This document shows, in pieces, positions 1,725 to 11,377 of a DNA stretch of 33,220 nucleotides (position 1 is the stretch's first letter; each line of letters opens with the position of its first letter). The position numbers and the translations under genes were made by a program. This DNA comes from Candidatus Choladousia intestinipullorum (GTDB lineage Bacteria > Bacillota > Clostridia > Lachnospirales > Lachnospiraceae): contig DVHT01000189.1 in the NCBI GenBank assembly GCA_018711885.1, forward strand, positions 1-33,220. The letters are read 5' to 3'. A model generated the notes under the pieces. That model searched no databases and had not been told where the DNA came from. It was given only the letters and a program-made list of their open reading frames with translations.

Positions 1725-2390
1725 TTAAAAAAAATATGGAAAAACGACTGCCGCCGCATTAGATCCGATATGGAACAGCACCGGAAATACGAATAATTGC
1801 CCGTGTTCATAGACGGCCGTAAGAGCCAGCGCCATAGGAAAAGCAAAGATGATCTGGATCGGATTTCCATGGTAAAGCGCAAATAAAAGCGACGACAGAA
1901 CAGCCGCTGTCTTTACCGGAAAGTATCGCTTCATCCTGCCGTATACCAGTACGCGGAAGATCAGCTCCTCCGCAAGCGGGACCAGAAAACAGAGTCCCAC
2001 AAGCTGCACAGCCATGCTTCCCGCCAGCAGAACCTCCTGTGTCTCATTGGAAAAAACGTCCTGTATCCCTGCCGCATTCAGGACGGTACTCCATACAACA
2101 TTCAGGACAGCGCCGGCAGCGATACAGAATACACCGAACAAAATCTTTCCCGCAATACCGGTATCCTTTACCTCTCTGCTTTGTCCGGCATGCGTCTCCT
2201 GTGCGGAAATGTCTCCGCCTGCACGGATCCGGTCCTGCCGGTACATCGCCCATACAAACGGAAGAACGATTAAAGCCGCAAGCGCCGTGCAGGAAGCCGC
2301 ATCCAGCCTCTGCCCAAATAATGCCGCCACTGTATTCGACACCAGCATATGCAGCAGGACCGGCGTCACTATCGAAATTAATCCGGACAT
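1725..2390 (-). CDS. CPBP-family intramembrane metalloprotease
   Basis: This 221-residue multi-pass membrane protein belongs to the CPBP (CAAX prenyl protease 2 / Abi) family of intramembrane glutamate proteases. The three family motifs are all in the C-terminal half: EELIFR (the EExxxR motif), FALYH (FxxxH) and HIGSN (HxxxN). Hydrophobic segments occupy most of the rest. The ATG at 2390 has GGGAGG a few bases upstream. In Gram-positives such proteins have been linked to bacteriocin self-protection, protein maturation and regulated proteolysis, but the substrate here is unknown. It lies downstream of the kinase/surface-protein operon beyond a hairpin, so read-through linkage is possible but unproven. 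Confidence 0.85.
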   Translation of the reverse strand: MSGLISIVTPVLLHMLVSNTVAALFGQRLDAASCTALAALIVLPFVWAMYRQDRIRAGGDISAQETHAGQSREVKDTGIAGKILFGVFCIAAGAVLNVVWSTVLNAAGIQDVFSNETQEVLLAGSMAVQLVGLCFLVPLAEELIFRVLVYGRMKRYFPVKTAAVLSSLLFALYHGNPIQIIFAFPMALALTAVYEHGQLFVFPVLFHIGSNAAAVVFPYFF

Positions 2391-2410
2391 TTTTCCTCCC
2401 TGTAAAAGCA

Positions 2411-2452
2411 GGCCCGACCGCAGGGAAACCTCATTTCCCAGTCAGTCAGGCC
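2411..2452 (-). terminator. Nested hairpin, likely terminator or attenuator of the surface-protein operon
   Basis: The segment folds as an outer stem GGCCTGAC/GTCGGGCC (minus strand, one G-U pair) around an inner stem GGGAAA/TTTCCC. It sits 12 bases after the stop of the TcaA-like gene and is followed by only a short TGCTTTTAC tract, so termination may be partial, with some read-through into the CPBP gene. Confidence 0.5.
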
Positions 2453-2464
2453 GTCTTCTGTCTT

Positions 2465-3607
2465 TTATGCGTTCTCCGGTATTACCGGAATTTCAAATGA
2501 TGCAATGCTCCATGCGCCGTCAGCAAATGACATCACAAATGTCGCCGTATTGTCTCCGGACTGTGATGCAGTCTCTGTCTGCTGTACCGGCGTACCGTCT
2601 TCCTGGAGTTCTTCTGTGTCTGTCGTGACATCCTGGCGCACCACATAATGATAAGAAAATGTCATCTCTGTCGTGATCGCCCCGTCTTCGCCTTCGGTAA
2701 ACTGCAGATTGCCGAACTGTGCCGCAAAATCGGAAATCGCCGCATTGCGGAACACACTTCCGTCCTGATGCAGCCGCGTCCCCTGGCTTTCGACGAAATC
2801 CTCGGCTGTTGTAAGGCTGTCCGCAAACAGCGTCTCCAGACCATCCGTACTCTCTGTCGCCGCTCCGGCATAGAGCTGTTTCAAAGCATTCACTGCCATC
2901 TCCTTACACTCGTCCTGTGCCGATGTCTTCAAAGCCATCTGAGCAGTATAATCCGCGCTGCCCGCTGTCGTATCAAGTGTTGTATTGACCGATTCAAGCG
3001 CCGGATGGCGCACAGCTACGCTGATCTCTCCAGGAAGCAGGCTTGGCACCTCATAGCAGTCATACGATGCCGCCACTCCATCCGTCACGATCCACGCTGC
3101 ATCCGCCGGCTCGTTGTCCAGATAGAGTTCTGAACCTGCCGGGACTGTAATCCGGAAATTCTTCACCATACAGTGACCGGACAGTATCCTCCATCTGTCA
3201 AAAATCCCGAAAGCTGCATCCGCCTGTTTTCTTACCGTAAAATCCTCTTCATACTGTACTTCACCGTCAGCATTCAGAAATCTTGCGTGGTAATCGACGT
3301 ACTCATTTCCGTCGCTGTCGCGGCGGTTCTCTCCTCTTTCCAGCTCGTATTCCGAATAAAGGCTGTATTTTCTGGCCTCAAGCGCCGCTGCATACTCCTG
3401 TGATGTGATCGGAGTATCCTGTGACTGGTCAAGCAGCGTATACGCCCTGTCTGCATCATTCTCGATCAGCCTTCCCAGATACTGCTCCATTGCATAATCC
3501 GGGGTACTCTGCTGATATGCGCGCAGGCAGGCGGCTCCGCCCCCGAACAACAGTACGATAAGCAGCAGTACCAATACTTTCACTAATACTCTCTTCCATG
3601 CTTTCAT
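2465..3607 (-). CDS. Membrane-anchored extracytoplasmic protein, TcaA/YvbJ-like architecture
   Basis: This 380-residue protein has a basic N-terminus and one membrane segment (about residues 8-28), followed by an exported region. By eye that region splits into an NTF2-like alpha/beta domain (about 35-145), a short beta domain starting VKNFRITVPAGSELYLDNEPA (about 150-225), and a second NTF2-like domain (about 230-375). This resembles the extracellular part of TcaA/YvbJ proteins, which influence cell-wall stress and glycopeptide response in staphylococci, though no zinc ribbon is visible. The start has an AGGGAGG ribosome site. It begins 13 bases after the YARHG gene stops, so the two are co-transcribed. 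The family assignment is an inference from layout and is not certain. Confidence 0.6.
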   Translation of the reverse strand: MKAWKRVLVKVLVLLLIVLLFGGGAACLRAYQQSTPDYAMEQYLGRLIENDADRAYTLLDQSQDTPITSQEYAAALEARKYSLYSEYELERGENRRDSDGNEYVDYHARFLNADGEVQYEEDFTVRKQADAAFGIFDRWRILSGHCMVKNFRITVPAGSELYLDNEPADAAWIVTDGVAASYDCYEVPSLLPGEISVAVRHPALESVNTTLDTTAGSADYTAQMALKTSAQDECKEMAVNALKQLYAGAATESTDGLETLFADSLTTAEDFVESQGTRLHQDGSVFRNAAISDFAAQFGNLQFTEGEDGAITTEMTFSYHYVVRQDVTTDTEELQEDGTPVQQTETASQSGDNTATFVMSFADGAWSIASFEIPVIPENA

Positions 3608-3620
3608 GTTCCGTACCTCC

Positions 3621-4484
3621 CTAATTTCCTGCCAATGCTGCTTCGTAGTTCAAAATGACATTCAGATTTGCTTCCTCATAATCATTCAGGTAATAGAACA
3701 TGTTTGCATCAAACTCTTCCGGTGAATACTGCGGAACATACCATGATTTCTGACTGAAATAGTCACGCAGATCCTGCGAGTTGAAGATACGCCCGTTCAG
3801 GGCAAAAATCTCGTTCCGGATCAGGCGCAGCTGCCCTGCGTCATAATTATAAAGCTCACTCTCGTCGATGTACCGGCTGCTGATTCCCTGGATGATCACA
3901 TCATCCGGTGTATAGGCGGATTCTTCGCCTGAGCTTCCGCTGCTGCCGTCATCATACGTGTAATCACCGTTTCCCGGATCAGTAATTTCAATTGTCTGTC
4001 CGCCGGAACCGCCGTCCGTATAGCCGTCGGAACCGCTGTAGCTGCCGTCATCTGTATAACCGCCGTCTCCGCTGCTGCCGTTATCCGTATAGCTGCCATC
4101 TCCGCTGTAGCTGCCGTCTCCGGAACCGCCGTCCGTTCCTGTATCTCCTGATGTTCCGTCAGAACTGATCGGATTTCCCTGCTCGTCTGTCTCCACAGTC
4201 TCCCCATTTTCGTCTGTTTCCGTCGGAGCTTCCGTCTCGACTCCCTTAATAATGTTGCCTGAAGCCGTAACAGTAAATGCATCTGTCTCATAGACTCTGC
4301 TCTCACTGGTCTCCGGCGCAAGCTCCGACGCCGTTTCCTGTTCTTCCGGTTCCGTTCCCGGAGAAGTCAGCATCAGACCGTTTGTCATCGCAGTATCGAC
4401 GGCAAAAAATGATACTGCTGCCGTCAACACACAGCCCGCAAGAAATCCGCTGTTGCGTTTAAAAATATTTGTTTTCTTTTTCAT
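3621..4484 (-). CDS. YARHG-domain surface protein with Gly/Ser/Asp linker
   Basis: This 287-residue protein has an N-terminal membrane anchor or uncleaved signal (about residues 10-34) and an acidic Glu/Thr-rich stretch. A repetitive Gly-Ser-Asp-Tyr linker (about 105-190) follows, and then a C-terminal YARHG domain (about 200-283). The YARHG signature is seen in LRLIRNEIFALNGRIF followed by DYFSQKSWYVPQ. YARHG domains occur on exported proteins of Firmicutes and are thought to act at the cell wall, and their ligand is not established. The ATG lies downstream of AAAGGGGTGAG, where CCCC and GGGG can pair in a small hairpin. It is the third gene of the kinase operon. Confidence 0.8.
   Translation of the reverse strand: MKKKTNIFKRNSGFLAGCVLTAAVSFFAVDTAMTNGLMLTSPGTEPEEQETASELAPETSESRVYETDAFTVTASGNIIKGVETEAPTETDENGETVETDEQGNPISSDGTSGDTGTDGGSGDGSYSGDGSYTDNGSSGDGGYTDDGSYSGSDGYTDGGSGGQTIEITDPGNGDYTYDDGSSGSSGEESAYTPDDVIIQGISSRYIDESELYNYDAGQLRLIRNEIFALNGRIFNSQDLRDYFSQKSWYVPQYSPEEFDANMFYYLNDYEEANLNVILNYEAALAGN
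3998..4140 (-). repeat. Degenerate repeat encoding the Gly/Ser/Asp/Tyr linker
   Basis: Imperfect short repeats of the type GDGSY / DDGSY / SGDGGYTD encode the spacer of the YARHG protein. At DNA level the blocks ccgccgtc and ctgccgtc recur every 12 to 30 bases, so length variation between strains by slippage is likely. Confidence 0.6.
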
Positions 4485-4548
4485 TATTTATCTCTCACCC
4501 CTTTATGGGGCATCATATCACAGATGTCGAAAAAAGTCTACGGAAACT

Positions 4549-7134
4549 CTATTTTTTCCTGCCGCTCCCATTTATCGCAAATGACGCCGCCGTAGCGGCA
4601 AACATCAGGAGCCCGAACGCCAGCAGAAGAGTCCCGCCGTTCTGGCCCGTTCCCGCAATACGGCCGGCCTTTGCCCCGTCCGCTCCGAGGCTCTGTTCCT
4701 TCATTACCCTTGCTGTACTTTTAAGGGCAGCATCCGCACTCCTTCTGTCCTTTCTGTACCTGGGCGCCTCGTCCGTCTTTTTCCCCACAAATACCGGGAT
4801 TTCCTGACTCCAGTAAGAATTACCGGCCATATCCTCCAGCCAGACCCGGAGCGTCTGCCAGTCTTCCGCCTGATCCAGAGTGATTTTTACCGTCTCGTCT
4901 TCTTTTCCTGCCTCTTCCCGTTCCAGTATCACGGTACTGTCCCGATAGACTTTCATCCGCCTGATCCCTGTATTGTCGTAAGGCGTAACGCAGGCCGTAA
5001 CACATTTTGCATCATACCCCTGCTCCGCTTCGATTCCCGTAACTGTACAGTCCGGAGCTGTCCAGTCCAGCACAAACGCCACCTGCTTTTTCTGAATCCC
5101 CGTGTCGCTTACATTATCCGCACTGTCTTTTGAAGTCAGGAGCAGCTCATATACTCCCTCTTTCTGAAAATACCCCGCCGGAACGGTATAGCAGTACCGT
5201 TTCCAGGAATCCTTCGTTCCCGTCATCGCGACAGAATAATCCACGCCGCGCCTGAGCAGCTCCAGTTCTCCGTCCCGCCTGCAGTAAATATCGGACTCAC
5301 CTACGTAATCAATATTTGTCTCATAAAATGTGATCGGCTCGGCTTTTGAAAGGAAATACTGTCCCAGTTTCTCCCGCGTCTCTTCCGACAGTTCATAGAC
5401 CGATCCGTATCGGTTGACCGAGAATTCTATCATTTCTTCTGCTTTGTTCCCCGCCATATCCTCCGCTGTCACTGACAGCCGATAAATATCGTCATAACTT
5501 TTCTGCACAGGAAAATCAAAGTACCGGACGGCCGCGCCGCGGTCTGTCTCTTTTTTTTCACTGACAGCCGGAAACTTTCCATGATTGATTCCGGCAAATT
5601 CAATCTGCAGGCTGCCGGGTTTATAATGCGCGTCATTTCCTTTTATTTTTACTTTTACCTTCCCTGAATTTGCCGTCTGGTCCTGCACCCCTCCGATCGT
5701 GATCTTGGGAGCGGTCCTGTCTACACAGACGATCCCGCTTTTTGAAAAATGGACGTTTCCGACGTTATCCTCCGTCCTGACAAAAATCTGGTACATCCCT
5801 TCCTGTTCAATCTGTACCGTATGCTCTGTCCTGCATGAAATCCATTCCTCTTTCTGCGGATCGCACAGCAGCCTGCCGCCGCTGTCACAATTTAATACGA
5901 GATACGCTGAAGATTTCAGCCCGCTCCTGCCGTCCGGCGCAACGGTGATCTCTGCTTTGGCTGTATCCGGAACGTACGTTATCCCTCCGGAAACTTTGCC
6001 TGAAAGCGTGATATCAGCAGGCGGAGCTTCCCCGTCAATCGCATACTGCTCCTGACAAGTCTCCGGCACTCCGTCTGATCCGTCTGTGCTCTGCACCTGG
6101 AAGCGGATCATGCCGTCTTCCTGCAGATTTTGAAAGCTCTGTTCCCCGGTGCAGACGCTCCCGGCCTTTGTCTCAAGATAGAGGCTGCTTCCCGGCCTGA
6201 CCCACAGATGTCCCGCTTCGTCACGATACCATGCTCCGGCATCTCCGACAACATCATACCGTTTCTCTGTCTGCTTCTTCTCTTTTTTCTCTTTTTTCTC
6301 TTTCTTCTTTTTCTTCCTGCCGCGTTCTTCCGTGGTCTCTCCCGTCTGCGCTTCTGTCGCTTCAGCCTTTGGGTCTGACACTTCTGTCAAACTTTCCGCC
6401 GCCGTCTCCTGTACCGGCTCTTTGAGTCCTTCCGTACTCATCTGCGTCTGCGGTTCCAAATCGGCTGCCGTCTGCTCGAGACCCCCGGACTCCGGCTCTG
6501 TATTGTCCGCTTTCTCAGAAGCCGCGCTTCCGCCCGGTTTCTCCGTCTTTTCCGTTCCTTCCGGCATTTCTTTTTCCGTCTGTGTTTCTGCCGGCGCAGC
6601 ATCCAATGATATTTGTGTCATTTGTTCCTGCAGCAGCTCCGCTCCTTCTGCGGGCGGCATCGTCTCACTCTCCGCTGATGTCTCCGACTCCGCTGCAGCC
6701 GCGCTCTCCGGCACTTTCTCACTCTCTGATTCTGTCTCCTGCTCTGCCGTCGTCTCACTCTCCGCTGACGTCTCCTGCTCCGCTGCAGTCCCGCTCCCCA
6801 ATATTTTCTCACTCTCTGATTCTGTTTCGTCCTCTGTTTCTGTCCTGCTCTCTGCGCAGCTTTCACTCTCCGGCACTTCCGCGTATACCGGCACTGTCTC
6901 GCTTTCTGCAGCCGGAACAGGGATTTCTGTGCCGCGCACTTTTTCCAGAACAACTGTCCCGAGAGCCGCTGCGATATCGGTGGCTCCGCAGGCGACTGCA
7001 GGCCGGGCCGTATAACACTCTGTATACAGTTCTTCTGCAAAGACCAGGATCACGGCGGCGGCCACGCCAAACGCCAACATTTTCTGCAGCCGCTTTTTCT
7101 TTCTATCTCGCTGTCTCTTCTGTTTCTGTATCAA
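4549..7134 (-). CDS. Large Ig-like surface protein with acidic stalk and C-terminal anchor
   Basis: This protein of about 861 residues starts with a very basic segment and a membrane helix (MLAFGVAAAVILVFAEELY). A roughly 200-residue Glu/Ser/Thr/Ala-rich stalk follows, then a Lys-rich patch (KKKKKEKKEKKEKK) and several Ig-like beta domains carrying DRTAPKITI, AEDMAGNKAEE, LDWTAPDCTV and LEDMAGNSYW motifs. The C-terminus is IAGTGQNGG, a hydrophobic helix, and SGRKK, which resembles a sortase signal without a canonical LPxTG. The track ORF begins at 7191, but a TTG at 7134 with AAAGGGG upstream is the better start and cuts the overlap with the kinase to 32 bases. A downstream ATG at 7080 is another option. 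It is presumably an exported adhesin or sensor partner of the kinase. Its function is unknown. Confidence 0.75.
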   Translation of the reverse strand: MIQKQKRQRDRKKKRLQKMLAFGVAAAVILVFAEELYTECYTARPAVACGATDIAAALGTVVLEKVRGTEIPVPAAESETVPVYAEVPESESCAESRTETEDETESESEKILGSGTAAEQETSAESETTAEQETESESEKVPESAAAAESETSAESETMPPAEGAELLQEQMTQISLDAAPAETQTEKEMPEGTEKTEKPGGSAASEKADNTEPESGGLEQTAADLEPQTQMSTEGLKEPVQETAAESLTEVSDPKAEATEAQTGETTEERGRKKKKKEKKEKKEKKQTEKRYDVVGDAGAWYRDEAGHLWVRPGSSLYLETKAGSVCTGEQSFQNLQEDGMIRFQVQSTDGSDGVPETCQEQYAIDGEAPPADITLSGKVSGGITYVPDTAKAEITVAPDGRSGLKSSAYLVLNCDSGGRLLCDPQKEEWISCRTEHTVQIEQEGMYQIFVRTEDNVGNVHFSKSGIVCVDRTAPKITIGGVQDQTANSGKVKVKIKGNDAHYKPGSLQIEFAGINHGKFPAVSEKKETDRGAAVRYFDFPVQKSYDDIYRLSVTAEDMAGNKAEEMIEFSVNRYGSVYELSEETREKLGQYFLSKAEPITFYETNIDYVGESDIYCRRDGELELLRRGVDYSVAMTGTKDSWKRYCYTVPAGYFQKEGVYELLLTSKDSADNVSDTGIQKKQVAFVLDWTAPDCTVTGIEAEQGYDAKCVTACVTPYDNTGIRRMKVYRDSTVILEREEAGKEDETVKITLDQAEDWQTLRVWLEDMAGNSYWSQEIPVFVGKKTDEAPRYRKDRRSADAALKSTARVMKEQSLGADGAKAGRIAGTGQNGGTLLLAFGLLMFAATAASFAINGSGRKK
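6661..6824 (-). repeat. Two-copy 90-bp tandem repeat in the stalk of the Ig-like protein
   Basis: Blocks beginning at 6661 and 6751 share about 74 bases with few differences, starting cgtctcactctccgctga and ending ctcactctctgattctg. The 90-base period keeps the reading frame and encodes a 30-residue unit containing ETSAESET and TESESEK. This is typical of length-variable surface stalks. Confidence 0.75.
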
Positions 7135-8812
7135 TCGTATTTCCCCTTTCGTCTTCGAACACTCTCTCCACCGCTTCTTTTGCGGCTTCATACTGTTCCA
7201 GTATCACCTCCCTTTCTTTTCTGTTTTCCCATGCTTCCGCAGATTTTACGAAGGTTTCCAATGTACTCAGCACCGGTTTCACCTCCCGGTAGGCCCGTTT
7301 TCCACTGAATTCTGCCGACCGTACAGCCAAAAATGAAATCAGTTCAGATGCGATCTGCCTTTTCACTTCCGGAAGCTCCAGATCCAGGCCGTCCATGCGC
7401 CAAAGCCGGCACAGATCATCCCAATAAGTCAGATATTCTTCTGCTTCCTGCCCCAGTCCCTTCTTTCCCAGTTTTTCATAATACGATGCGATATCTGCAT
7501 GGATTGAAGCAGACAAAAACCACTCCTCCTGTCTTCCTTCTCCCTTTTCTTTCTGAGAAAGGATTGCCTCCCGAAACCAGAAAGACGCAGCGCTTTTTGC
7601 TCCCGGTCCATCATAAAAATACCAGTAAGCGATCCCCATCTGATAAGCGAAACGCCCGTAGACGTGAGAGTTTTCCTTTAATCTTTCCAGAATTGTTCCT
7701 CCCTGTCCGTCAACGGCTTGATAGACCAGATCCTTTAACTGTTTTTCTTCCTCCATGCTGAATACGTAATCCTCCTCAATCCGTCTCAGCAGACAGAACG
7801 CCCATCTTCCATCTTCCGTGAAAAGACCTGCCGCCTGTTCCAGGCACTCAAGCGCCTGCACGAATCCCAGTCCCTCCGACCGGCTCAGAAGCTCCTGATA
7901 CTGCTTCTTCACACGCGCATCTGTCTCCCCGGAAGGTTCCCAAACGGGCAGTTTGATCAAAAAAAGCAGCGATAAGGAAAGCAAAAAGAATGCTCCCACT
8001 GCCTTGCTGCCCTGCTTTTTCCGTTGATACCGGCGGCGCAAACGCCGCATGACCCGGTACAGTTCCGTGCAGTCCTGAAAACGCTGCTCTTTTTCCGCCT
8101 GCAGACACCGTTCCAAAATCCGTCCGATCTTCCGGACCTGACTTTGGGGCATTCCCGTAAGTTCTGATTTTTTCCGGACCCCCGGCTTTGCCGCTGGCGG
8201 CGCACAGCCATACAGGCAGTAGTACATGGAAGCGCCAAATCCATAGACATCGGTGCGCGCATCCACCTCTCTTCCTCCATACTGCTCCGGCGCCGCAAAT
8301 CCCGGTGTCCCGGCACACCCGGCCGTGCTCTTTGTTCCGCGCAAAAACACAGCGGCGCCAAAGTCGATCAGCACCGGTACTCCGTCTTTCCTGATCAGAA
8401 TATTGGTCGGCTTGACATCCAGATGAAGGACGGGCAGCGTCCTCGTGTGCAAATATCCAAGCACATCCAAAAGCCCGAGTGCAATAGAAAAAAACTGTTC
8501 TGCCGTGAGCCCCCGTTTCGCCAGCTTCGAAAGAACCTGACCTGAAACGTATTCCATGACCAGCCAGATCTGTTCTTTTTCTTCAATCACATCTATGATT
8601 TCCGGCAGAGAAGGATGGCACAGCCTCTTCATCATATCCAATTCATGGATCTGATCTCTGTTCTCAGAAACTGGAAGCCGTTTGGCCGCACGTATCTTCT
8701 CTGTAGAAAGGTGCACTACGAGGTAGACCGTCCCCTCTCCGCCGCTGCCAAGACATCTGAGTTTTCTGTAGCGTCCTCCGATCAGTTCCGTATCCGACCG
8801 CTTGGTTTTCAT
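7103..8812 (-). CDS. Transmembrane Hanks-type Ser/Thr protein kinase with helical exported domain
   Basis: This eukaryotic-like Ser/Thr kinase has a complete catalytic core: glycine loop LGSGGEGTVY, the ATP-binding Lys in RAAKRL, catalytic loop HLDVKPTN, metal-binding DFG in LIDFGAA, and a GTPGFAAPEQ activation/APE segment. A single membrane helix (AVGAFFLLSLSLLFLI) follows, then about 270 exported residues that look helical and TPR-like, instead of the PASTA repeats of PknB/PrkC. The track start at 8851 would leave a leader of only about 11 bases without a ribosome site. The ATG at 8812 lies 14 bases after AAAGGAGG and is preferred. It is the first gene of an operon with three exported proteins. 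No PP2C phosphatase or FHA partner is visible in the window. Confidence 0.9.
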   Translation of the reverse strand: MKTKRSDTELIGGRYRKLRCLGSGGEGTVYLVVHLSTEKIRAAKRLPVSENRDQIHELDMMKRLCHPSLPEIIDVIEEKEQIWLVMEYVSGQVLSKLAKRGLTAEQFFSIALGLLDVLGYLHTRTLPVLHLDVKPTNILIRKDGVPVLIDFGAAVFLRGTKSTAGCAGTPGFAAPEQYGGREVDARTDVYGFGASMYYCLYGCAPPAAKPGVRKKSELTGMPQSQVRKIGRILERCLQAEKEQRFQDCTELYRVMRRLRRRYQRKKQGSKAVGAFFLLSLSLLFLIKLPVWEPSGETDARVKKQYQELLSRSEGLGFVQALECLEQAAGLFTEDGRWAFCLLRRIEEDYVFSMEEEKQLKDLVYQAVDGQGGTILERLKENSHVYGRFAYQMGIAYWYFYDGPGAKSAASFWFREAILSQKEKGEGRQEEWFLSASIHADIASYYEKLGKKGLGQEAEEYLTYWDDLCRLWRMDGLDLELPEVKRQIASELISFLAVRSAEFSGKRAYREVKPVLSTLETFVKSAEAWENRKEREVILEQYEAAKEAVERVFEDERGNTIDTETEETAR

Positions 8813-8868
8813 TTCATATCCATACGCCTCCTTTTGTTTGAGAATTTTCATATATAATATGTGATTAT

Positions 8869-8897
8869 ATTATCTTTCAATCAGCCCGCTTTGTCAA
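8869..8897 (-). promoter_or_regulatory. Strong sigma-A promoter of the kinase/surface-protein operon
   Basis: The minus strand carries TTGACA (8892-8897), a 17-base spacer and GATAAT (8869-8874). The predicted transcript start near 8862 supports translation from the downstream ATG at 8812 over the track start at 8851. Confidence 0.75.
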
Positions 8898-8939
8898 GTG
8901 GTTTTTAGAACACTGTTCCCGAAATCCCGGATGACAAAG

Positions 8940-8984
8940 AGGCTGCTGCAGGATGATAAACTGCTCTTCATCCTGCGGCAGCCT
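8940..8984 (-). terminator. Hairpin terminator after the amidase/beta-lactamase-like gene
   Basis: A long near-perfect inverted repeat, AGGCTGCCGCAGGATGA against TCATCCTGCAGCAGCCT (minus strand), lies about 60 bases after the stop codon. The tract after it (CTCTTTGTC) is only weakly T-rich. The stem is strong enough to act as an end of transcript. Confidence 0.6.
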
Positions 8985-9045: not shown

Positions 9046-10737
9046 TCAGATCAGCTCATAGACCGTTCCCGATATCTGTGCGATCTGCTCAATCGCAGCT
9101 GCATGATCTGCAAGGTTCTGGCTCAAGATACAGAGAACGTACACGGAGCCGTCCGTCTCTACGACTGCTGCGTCGTTCTCAACCTGGTCCCCGTACTCTC
9201 CCGCCAGTTCCCCTGTCTTATTCGCCGACAGCGCCGTTGTTCCTTCCAGACCGGCAGGGATCTTGTTTCTGCGTGTCTGGTTCACCAGATACTCATACAT
9301 TTTCGCCGACGCTTCTGCATTGACGCAGGTTCCGCTGTAAATGCTCTCAAGCAGTCTGAGGCAGTCATTTGCAGACGTGTAATTATCGCCTGCCGGGTTT
9401 TCCTCCAGAAACCTGCGGCCCAGTACAGTCGCAGTGTAGCCGTTCTCCTGGCAGAACTGGTTTACGACCTGCATCCCCGTCTGAGCGTCACCGCCTCCGA
9501 GCCGCTCGATCAGGGTATTTGCCGCCTCATTGTCACTGACCGTTATCATATCCGTGATAAGCTGTTTCAGTTCCCCGTCATAGGATTCTTCAAATGTAAT
9601 ATGGCGCTCCTCAGAAGCCGGATAGCATACGCGGTCATAGATCGCGGCCATGATAAACAGCTTGATCACACTGGCCGATTTCATCTGCCGGTCTCCCTCG
9701 ATGCTGCCCTGCGCCCCCGTCGTGAGATTTTTCACGCTGAAAGCCCATTCTTCCCCGGACTCCATAGACGGATAAAGATAGTCTTCACCGACCTGTTCGA
9801 CCAGAGCATTCATCTTTGCCGCCGCTTCTTCCGTGACCGTTTCCTCTTTCATTCCCTTTTCCGTAAAATACCGGTCAATGCCGTCCGCGATCCCTTCCGC
9901 CATCAGCGGCTGTACAGACGGATCTGACATCCTGGAATCGTCGGACTGGTTCGTCATAAAGCCCATCTCCAGGATCATCACCGGAATCTGGCTCCAGTTA
10001 ATCCCCGTCATATTGTCGTAATACTGCACTCCGAGAGATTCAAACGAAGCTTTGCTGCAGTAGGCATCCAGAATACACTGTCCCAGCAGATAAGAATCCT
10101 CCGCCAGATAGCCGACATACGGATTGTCAGAAGACGGGACCATCGCAAGCGCCCCGCTAACGCTGGGATCATCGGAGCCGTTCGCATGGATGCGGACGTA
10201 AATGTCGCCTCCCTGTTCATAGGCAAGCTGCGCCCGCTCTGCGTTGCTGATCGCCGTATCGTGATCCTCTCTCGTCAGAACGACTTCATATCCTCTCTCT
10301 TCCAGCTCATCCCTCAGCAGCAGGGAAATCTCAAGATTCAGTTCGTACTCTTTCTTATCACTGAATGAGCTTTGCGTGCCGGTCGACGCTTTTGCTTTCA
10401 TCTCTGAAGATCCCGGGCCGCTCGGCTCCTGATCGCTCATGTCGACCCAGCTTCCCTGATGCCCCGGATCGATCGCCACAACAAGCTTCTCCTGCGGCTC
10501 GCTCTCCTTCGTCATCCCGGACTCCCCGGTATCATCTTCCGCTGTTTCTGCTTCCGTCGCAGTCACGGTCCCGGTCGCTTCCGTCTGTTCCGGTCTGCTT
10601 CCTCCGCTTTGTCCTCCCGTCTCGCTGTGACCGGCCCAAAGCCATATGACGATTCCCGCACACAGGAGCAAAATGATCACGACCGCCGCCAAAATCCCGG
10701 TGACAGGGATCTCCTTCTTCTTTTTCCGATTCGCCAT
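9046..10737 (-). CDS. Membrane-anchored Amidase_3 / class-A beta-lactamase-like fusion protein
   Basis: This 563-residue protein has a basic N-terminus, one membrane helix (about residues 10-33), an acidic Thr/Glu linker and two enzyme-like domains. The first (about 85-300) is N-acetylmuramoyl-L-alanine amidase, Amidase_3 type: DPGHQG, the Glu in YELNLEISL and VRIHANGSDD supply zinc ligands, and ILEMGFMTN supplies the catalytic Glu. The second (about 310-563) has class-A beta-lactamase fold motifs: SASVIKLF (SxxK), VSDNEAAN (SDN) and ANKTGEL (KTG). The usual omega-loop Glu166 context is not obvious in GRRFLEENPAGDNYTSAND. It probably works on peptidoglycan outside the membrane. The ATG at 10737 after GGGGAGG is preferred over the track start at 10797, which lies inside the preceding HD gene. 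Confidence 0.9.
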   Translation of the reverse strand: MANRKKKKEIPVTGILAAVVIILLLCAGIVIWLWAGHSETGGQSGGSRPEQTEATGTVTATEAETAEDDTGESGMTKESEPQEKLVVAIDPGHQGSWVDMSDQEPSGPGSSEMKAKASTGTQSSFSDKKEYELNLEISLLLRDELEERGYEVVLTREDHDTAISNAERAQLAYEQGGDIYVRIHANGSDDPSVSGALAMVPSSDNPYVGYLAEDSYLLGQCILDAYCSKASFESLGVQYYDNMTGINWSQIPVMILEMGFMTNQSDDSRMSDPSVQPLMAEGIADGIDRYFTEKGMKEETVTEEAAAKMNALVEQVGEDYLYPSMESGEEWAFSVKNLTTGAQGSIEGDRQMKSASVIKLFIMAAIYDRVCYPASEERHITFEESYDGELKQLITDMITVSDNEAANTLIERLGGGDAQTGMQVVNQFCQENGYTATVLGRRFLEENPAGDNYTSANDCLRLLESIYSGTCVNAEASAKMYEYLVNQTRRNKIPAGLEGTTALSANKTGELAGEYGDQVENDAAVVETDGSVYVLCILSQNLADHAAAIEQIAQISGTVYELI

Positions 10738-10783
10738 GATACCTCCCCTTCTCCGGTTCTTGTTCTTCTTATTATTTCCAGCT

Positions 10784-11377
10784 TCAGGAAGCTTCATACT
10801 CCTTCATTGCATCCGCCACCTGCTGTTCACAGCTTCTCATTGCAAGGATGGTCTGCTCCATCAGTTCTTCCAGCGTCCAGCCAAGCCTCTCTGCTCCTTC
10901 TTTTATCACATCCCTGGAACATCCTGCCGCAAAGCGCTTGTCTTTGAATTTTTTCTTCAGGCTCGATACCTCCATATCGGAAACGCTTCTGGACGGACGC
11001 ATCTTTGCTGCCGCGCCGATCAGTCCCGTCAGCTCGTCCACAGCGAACAGTACCTTTTCCATTTCATGTTTCGGCTCTGCGTCGCTGCAGATACCATAGC
11101 CGTGGCTGCAGATGGAATAGATCATTTCCTCGCTCACTCCGCCTTTTTTCAGCAGTTCCGGCGCTTTTTTACAGTGCTGCTCCGGATAGAGCTCAAAATC
11201 AATATCATGCAGCAGCCCTGTGATAGCCCAGTACTGCGCTTCCGCCTCATATCCCAGCTTTTTTGCATACCAGTCCATCACTGCTTCTACCGTCAGTGCG
11301 TGCTGAATATGAAACGGCTCTTTGTTATATTCTTTTAAAAGTGTAAATGCGTCATCTCTTGAAATCGTACTTATCAT
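10784..11377 (-). CDS. HD-domain hydrolase
   Basis: This protein of about 197 residues belongs to the HD superfamily of metal-dependent phosphohydrolases. Visible motifs are FHIQHALTVEAVM near the N-terminus, the LLHDIDFE doublet, SICSHGYG and a later FAVDELTGLI, giving the H...HD...D pattern. Such proteins hydrolyse phosphate from nucleotides or related compounds, and the substrate cannot be told from sequence. The track start is a GTG at 11389. The ATG at 11377, with GGAG six bases upstream, is better placed. The amidase/beta-lactamase-like gene follows after 46 bases, probably in the same transcript. Confidence 0.8.
   Translation of the reverse strand: MISTISRDDAFTLLKEYNKEPFHIQHALTVEAVMDWYAKKLGYEAEAQYWAITGLLHDIDFELYPEQHCKKAPELLKKGGVSEEMIYSICSHGYGICSDAEPKHEMEKVLFAVDELTGLIGAAAKMRPSRSVSDMEVSSLKKKFKDKRFAAGCSRDVIKEGAERLGWTLEELMEQTILAMRSCEQQVADAMKEYEAS

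What the first reader, a model, noticed from the sequence alone, without database searches (positions are those of the whole stretch)
2465..8897. Operon coupling a non-PASTA transmembrane Ser/Thr kinase to three exported structural proteins
One strong promoter drives a kinase with a helical TPR-like exported domain, a giant Ig-like stalk protein, a YARHG protein and a TcaA/YvbJ-like protein, ending in a hairpin. All four have an extracytoplasmic part and a single N-terminal anchor. Seen: tight spacing, shared strand and domain motifs. Inferred: an envelope-sensing system in which the exported proteins act as ligand binders or kinase partners. I know of no described system with this exact set.
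Basis: partly seen in the sequence, partly recalled or inferred. Interest (0 to 1): 0.75.

Follow-up and report, generated by a model that had tools for sequence, protein, structure and literature searches.

The report
Orphan secretion-type kinase beside wall genes
A gut bacterium carries a membrane protein kinase and its giant surface partner, a pair so far described as parts of a protein-secretion machine, here apparently kept without that machine and placed next to a separately switched set of cell-wall genes, which suggests that the pair was reused to monitor the cell envelope.

Summary
The four genes exist as described, and their order is strongly conserved: 25 genomes of the genus, the window included, have kinase–Ig–YARHG–TcaA-like–CPBP contiguous (proteins about 36–50% identical), and Robinsoniella keeps the order. 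The single-operon reading is only partly right. The Ig–YARHG junction holds a second promoter (-35 TRGACW, exactly 17 nt, extended -10) in 24 of 24 aligned loci. It remains in front of YARHG where 4 kb of other DNA separates the genes, and where kinase and Ig are gone. In the read-through mRNA the YARHG ribosome site is predicted to be occluded; in mRNA started at this promoter it is free (29 of 29 loci). So there are two adjacent units: kinase–Ig and YARHG–TcaA-like–CPBP. The kinase has a TPR-like ectodomain; the Ig protein has a signal peptide or anchor and a C-terminal membrane helix. The pair matches, by architecture and relatives, TseD–TseI of type VII secretion subtype T7SSe (2024), but no WXG100 or EssC was found in this genome. 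The window's kinase clade has lost the HRD arginine and the neighbouring PP2C gene. Best reading: an orphaned T7SSe-type kinase–stalk pair working as an envelope sensor beside a wall-protein unit. Function is inferred.

The parts
8869..8897 (-). Promoter P1 of the kinase-Ig unit (TTGACA-17-GATAAT)
   Evidence: 11 of 12; same type in 24 of 32 genus loci, mean score 10.75 vs 8.43 shuffled
7103..8851 (-). Transmembrane Hanks-type Ser/Thr kinase, catalytic residues intact, non-RD (HLD instead of HRD); likely start Met14 at 8812
7943..7999 (-). Kinase transmembrane helix (about residues 285-303)
   Evidence: Hydropathy
7103..7942 (-). TPR-like extracytoplasmic domain of the kinase
   Evidence: AlphaFold2 pLDDT 88.5, pTM 0.85, all-helical; Foldseek Rap/LGN/OGT TPR folds, prob 0.99, E about 0.08; profile search led by consensus TPR proteins
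4549..7191 (-). Large Ig-like protein: N-terminal hydrophobic segment (signal peptide or anchor) and C-terminal TM helix with basic tail (TseI-like)
4512..4540 (-). Promoter P2 of the YARHG unit (TAGACT-17-TATGAT, extended -10)
   Evidence: 24 of 24 aligned genus loci; in 1.02 Mb of genus loci (both strands) the pattern gives 26 hits, all with the site's own downstream G[CT]
4525..4531 (-). Candidate Spo0A (0A) box TTCGACA, reverse of TGTCGAA, in the P2 spacer
   Evidence: Exact in 15 of 24 loci; Spo0A in own genome 2.7e-46; consensus from PMC3485338
4498..4510 (-). CCCC-ATAAA-GGGG repeat; the GGGG is the YARHG Shine-Dalgarno, predicted occluded in read-through mRNA and free in mRNA started at P2
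   Evidence: mean unpaired 0.14 vs 0.81, same direction in 29 of 29 loci (window itself 0.22 vs 0.50)
3621..4484 (-). YARHG-domain exported protein (domain about 3642-3899)
   Evidence: Pfam YARHG 1.4e-20
2465..3607 (-). TcaA-like exported protein: N-terminal TM, MecA_N/NTF2-like region, beta domain, C-terminal NTF2-like domain; no zinc ribbon
2395..2470 (-). Strong hairpin between the TcaA-like and CPBP genes (terminator or attenuator)
1725..2390 (-). CPBP (Rce1-like) intramembrane protease, conserved next gene of the set
9046..10797 (-). Amidase_3 plus Beta-lactamase2 exported enzyme, conserved upstream neighbour; in R. peoriensis and G121 the amidase lies between the TcaA-like and CPBP genes

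Best explanation
Two adjacent, separately promoted units. Unit 1 is a T7SSe-type kinase-stalk pair (like TseD-TseI) that persists without a type VII secretion machine: a Ser/Thr kinase with a TPR-like ectodomain and an Ig-like membrane protein reaching into the wall. Proposed mechanism: the Ig protein senses or presents a wall state, the TPR domain reads it, and the non-RD kinase, which should not need activation-loop phosphorylation, phosphorylates cytoplasmic targets. Unit 2 makes the YARHG, TcaA-like and CPBP proteins from its own promoter, possibly under Spo0A; its ribosome site is masked in read-through mRNA, so expression of the two units is uncoupled. Shown by sequence: genes, order, both promoter motifs, relatives, and no detectable T7SS parts in this assembly. 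Predicted: folds and RNA masking. Inferred: sensing, phosphorylation, Spo0A control.
For: Conserved order in 25 genus loci. The kinase-Ig link extends across the family: 24 of 36 loci by a strict profile, 19 of 30 RD and 5 of 6 in the other group. Family relatives lie beside EssC (TIGR03928, 1108 bits, FHA) and WXG100 genes in L041, and beside EssC and/or WXG100 in L036, L037, L038 and L070, with PP2C and FHA or DUF6382-FHA genes, matching the published T7SSe parts list. Own genome: no WXG100 above cut-off and one FtsK/SpoIIIE-type ATPase; several congeners at least 95% complete with the kinase also lack WXG100. P2 and masking. Unit 2 kept without the pair in G422, G412 and G407, and separated from it by 4.2-4.6 kb in G152 and L107 with P2 intact. 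Window-type non-RD kinases form one clade, 94/88; 0 of 6 loci in the group without the Arg have an adjacent PP2C against 25 of 30 RD loci.
Against: No transcript, binding or phosphorylation data. Homology to TseD/TseI rests on architecture and neighbours; the authors' sequences were not compared. The assembly is about 89% complete. Overlap of the kinase and Ig genes, and of most genes in R. peoriensis and G121, would also suit a single operon. CCCC could be a promoter discriminator rather than a masking arm. The 0A box is missing or changed in 9 of 24 loci. The loss of Arg and of PP2C is probably one evolutionary event.
Confidence: 0.58

Rival explanations
1. One envelope-sensing operon: kinase, Ig, YARHG and TcaA-like proteins act together, the exported proteins serving as ligand binders or partners of the kinase, with P2 only boosting the later genes.
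For: Long-conserved order and tight spacing in the genus, and overlapping genes in R. peoriensis and G121.
Against: P2 lies in front of YARHG in every aligned genus locus; predicted masking of the read-through ribosome site; unit 2 kept without kinase and Ig in G422, G412 and G407 and moved about 4 kb away in G152; kinase-Ig without YARHG-TcaA in L035 and L047.
Confidence: 0.22
2. The pair is still part of a type VII secretion system encoded elsewhere in the genome, working in trans.
For: Homologues sit in T7SS loci; 14 of 47 genus genomes do have WXG100 genes above cut-off.
Against: No WXG100 above cut-off and only a SpoIIIE/FtsK-type ATPase in the own genome; near-complete congeners with the kinase but no WXG100, such as G439, G437, G152 and G404; no EssC or WXG100 at any genus kinase locus read.
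Confidence: 0.1
3. Conserved neighbourhood without functional coupling: the two gene sets stay together because of position between amidase and gltB genes, with unrelated roles in wall maintenance.
For: gltB is also conserved downstream, and the units are separable.
Against: The same grouping recurs in R. peoriensis and G121 with the amidase in another place, which is hard to explain by neutral linkage.
Confidence: 0.1

Closest known systems
T7SSe / T7SSd (TseD-TseI, TsdD-TsdI; PMC11217815)
   Same: Membrane Ser/Thr kinase with helical extracytoplasmic C-terminus, encoded with a giant Ig-like protein with signal peptide and C-terminal TM
   Different: No ATPase, WXG100, PPM phosphatase or FHA protein at the locus; non-RD kinase; next to YARHG/TcaA-like/CPBP genes
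PASTA kinases PrkC/Stk1/IreK
   Same: Cytoplasmic Hanks kinase, one TM, extracytoplasmic sensor
   Different: TPR-like ectodomain instead of PASTA; the genome has a separate PASTA kinase with PP2C at contig C127
YARHG-kinase fusion proteins (PMC3355149)
   Same: YARHG linked to a kinase, proposed peptidoglycan binding
   Different: Here separate genes with separate promoters
Staphylococcus aureus TcaA (PMC10328498)
   Same: One TM, large extracytoplasmic part, envelope context
   Different: No zinc ribbon, no Pfam TcaA domain hit
Masked ribosome sites of phage T4 gene e type (from memory)
   Same: Site hidden in long upstream-started mRNA, free in mRNA begun at a promoter inside the hairpin
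   Different: Bacterial gene pair; prediction only

Membership tests
T7SSe | Membrane Ser/Thr kinase with helical extracytoplasmic region (TseD) | tested here: met
T7SSe | Giant Ig-like protein with signal peptide and C-terminal TM (TseI) | tested here: met
   (880 aa, smaller than the 1654 aa reported for TsdI)
T7SSe | FtsK/SpoIIIE-type ATPase TseC (EssC-like) | tested here: not met
   Only one FtsK/SpoIIIE gene in the assembly, SpoIIIE/FtsK-like; none at genus loci read; assembly about 89% complete
T7SSe | WXG100 proteins TseA/TseA2 | tested here: not met
   Best own-genome hit E 0.0096, below cut-off; genus survey
T7SSe | PPM phosphatase TseF beside the kinase | tested here: not met
   0 of 6 loci without the HRD Arg against 25 of 30 RD loci
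T7SSe | TseJ DUF6382-FHA protein | tested here: not met
   Absent from window and the other non-RD loci; present at RD loci such as L046
T7SSe | Sequence relation to published TseD/TseI | not tested
   Authors' sequences not at hand; inferred from EssC/WXG100-linked relatives
PASTA kinase (Stk1/PrkC) | PASTA repeats outside the membrane | tested here: not met
   No PASTA hit; NF033483 112 bits vs cut-off 450, kinase region only
YARHG protein | YARHG domain above gathering score, exported | tested here: met
   73.5 bits vs 27; N-terminal TM
TcaA/YvbJ | N-terminal cytoplasmic zinc ribbon | tested here: not met
   remote zinc-ribbon relatives in other genomes
TcaA/YvbJ | Pfam TcaA domains | tested here: not met
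   Only sub-threshold MecA_N, E 0.0048
TcaA/YvbJ | C-terminal NTF2-like domain | tested here: inconclusive
   Model pLDDT 77.7; NTF2/cystatin-like Foldseek hits, best E 9.7e-4
Masked ribosome-site element (T4 gene e type) | SD paired in read-through mRNA, free in mRNA from the internal promoter | tested here: met
   Prediction only: 29 of 29 loci in the same direction, means 0.14 vs 0.81
Spo0A regulon | Spo0A binding at the promoter | not testable with these tools
   Box present, Spo0A gene present; binding not assayed

The most novel reading that the evidence does not exclude
A type VII secretion kinase-stalk pair has been stripped of its secretion machine and its phosphatase, turned into a non-RD envelope sensor, and coupled in the genome, through a promoter that both starts wall-protein expression and hides that unit's ribosome site from read-through, to a Spo0A-linked wall-protein unit.
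Probability: 0.33. Interest if true: 0.75.

Novelty: new variant of a known kind. Interest (0 to 1): 0.58.

Why it matters
It suggests that the kinase and Ig-like protein described in 2024 as T7SSe parts form a signalling pair that can live without the secretion system, which bears on what they do inside it. It also supplies a genus-wide natural series (pair present, decayed, absent, moved away) in which partnership with YARHG and TcaA-like proteins can be tested, and a conserved internal promoter with predicted ribosome-site masking in gut Lachnospiraceae.

Tried and rejected
EssB/YukC as the relative of the kinase: no such hit in Foldseek or profile searches; the ectodomain is TPR-like. Sortase-anchored stalk: no LPxTG-like motif seen before the C-terminal TM. 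P2 element as a genome-wide regulon: only this one site in the genome at up to 3 mismatches. PDB profile search with the TcaA-like alignment gave nothing useful. Literature searches for TcaA with YvbJ, for Hanks-type TPR kinases in Clostridia, and for the exact gene set returned nothing.

Full report
Observation. Pfam supports kinase, Ig-like and YARHG domains. The kinase has no PASTA domain, and the same genome has an ordinary PASTA kinase with a PP2C gene elsewhere. Catalytic residues are conserved (K57, D145, N150, D163), but the HRD arginine is Leu. The ectodomain model is confident and all-helical (pLDDT 88.5), and sequence and fold searches point to TPR repeats. The Ig protein has a hydrophobic segment at each end, so 'single N-terminal anchor' does not hold for it or for the kinase.

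Conservation. The kinase was found in 170 of 200 family genomes at E 1e-20 or better, though weaker hits cover only the kinase domain, and in 37 of 47 genus genomes at 1e-30. Twenty-five genus loci, the window included, have kinase–Ig–YARHG–TcaA-like–CPBP contiguous, usually with the amidase upstream and gltB downstream. The other genus loci end at a contig edge, except G152, which has 4.2 kb between Ig and YARHG, and G422, whose kinase is of the RD type. Named relatives include Bacterium 1XD42-54 and Robinsoniella peoriensis.

Two units. The Ig–YARHG junction aligns over 24 genus loci: -35 TRGACW, exactly 17 nt, TATNAT with an extended -10, then CCCC and a GGGG Shine-Dalgarno. In 1.02 Mb of genus loci (both strands) the -35/-10 pattern gives 26 hits, all followed by the site's G[CT]. 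It sits directly before YARHG in G152 and L107, where other genes separate YARHG from Ig, and in G422 (no kinase or Ig at the site), G412 (Ig remnant) and G407 (YARHG near a contig start, Ig remnant on another contig). Folding predicts the Shine-Dalgarno unpaired 0.14 in read-through RNA and 0.81 in RNA from P2, in the same direction in 29 of 29 loci; G422, without the upstream pair, is the one locus not occluded (0.85). These loci are related, so this is not 29 independent trials. The kinase promoter P1 is conserved too. A Spo0A-box sequence occurs in P2 in 15 of 24 loci and Spo0A is encoded; binding and direction are unknown.

What the kinase–Ig pair is. Across the family the kinase commonly lies with PP2C (25 of 30 RD loci), FHA proteins (16 of 30) and a giant Ig protein (19 of 30). 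In five of these loci EssC and/or WXG100 genes are near, and the L041 neighbour passes the EssC model with 1108 bits. This matches T7SSe as described in 2024: TseD kinase, TseI Ig-like giant, TseF phosphatase, TseJ DUF6382-FHA (PMC11217815). Many RD loci have no T7SS gene within the stretch read, and some lie near a prepilin peptidase gene, so the pair may be wider than T7SSe. The window clade is the most reduced: no PP2C, no FHA, non-RD kinase, one clade at 94/88 support, with long branches. No WXG100 above cut-off and no EssC were found in this genome, with the caveat of about 89% completeness; near-complete congeners with the kinase also lack WXG100.

Mechanism. Most likely the Ig protein and the TPR ectodomain form an envelope-sensing pair that signals through the kinase, while YARHG, TcaA-like and CPBP proteins, expressed separately, act on or monitor the wall. 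YARHG has been proposed to bind peptidoglycan and occurs fused to kinases (PMC3355149); S. aureus TcaA affects wall teichoic acids and autolysis (PMC10328498), but membership of the window protein in TcaA is not shown. Sensing, substrates and Spo0A control are inferred.

Verdict.

Noticed in passing
L046, L064, L065, L067, L073: Kinase-PP2C-FHA-Ig loci sharing a WG-repeat protein and an A24 prepilin peptidase family (both identified by Pfam in L046), with no EssC/WXG100 in the stretch read.
   Followed up: partly
L050:136-1755 (G121): Kinase of the set with DFG changed to DPG and no APE motif: perhaps a pseudokinase.
   Followed up: no
L037:14090-16006: LXG-domain protein with a Tox-GHH nuclease domain close to a kinase-PP2C-FHA locus, a likely T7SS antibacterial effector.
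   Followed up: no
L080-L103: Zinc-ribbon TcaA/YvbJ-like genes in other Lachnospiraceae are often next to YARHG and/or Amidase_3 genes, with no window-type kinase within about 1.5 kb, so that grouping may be older than the link to the kinase.
   Followed up: partly
window 8930-8975: Long inverted repeat between the amidase and kinase genes (by eye), a likely terminator of the amidase gene.
   Followed up: no
window 9046-10797: Amidase_3 fused to a Beta-lactamase2 domain; in several relatives the amidase is a shorter gene.
   Followed up: partly
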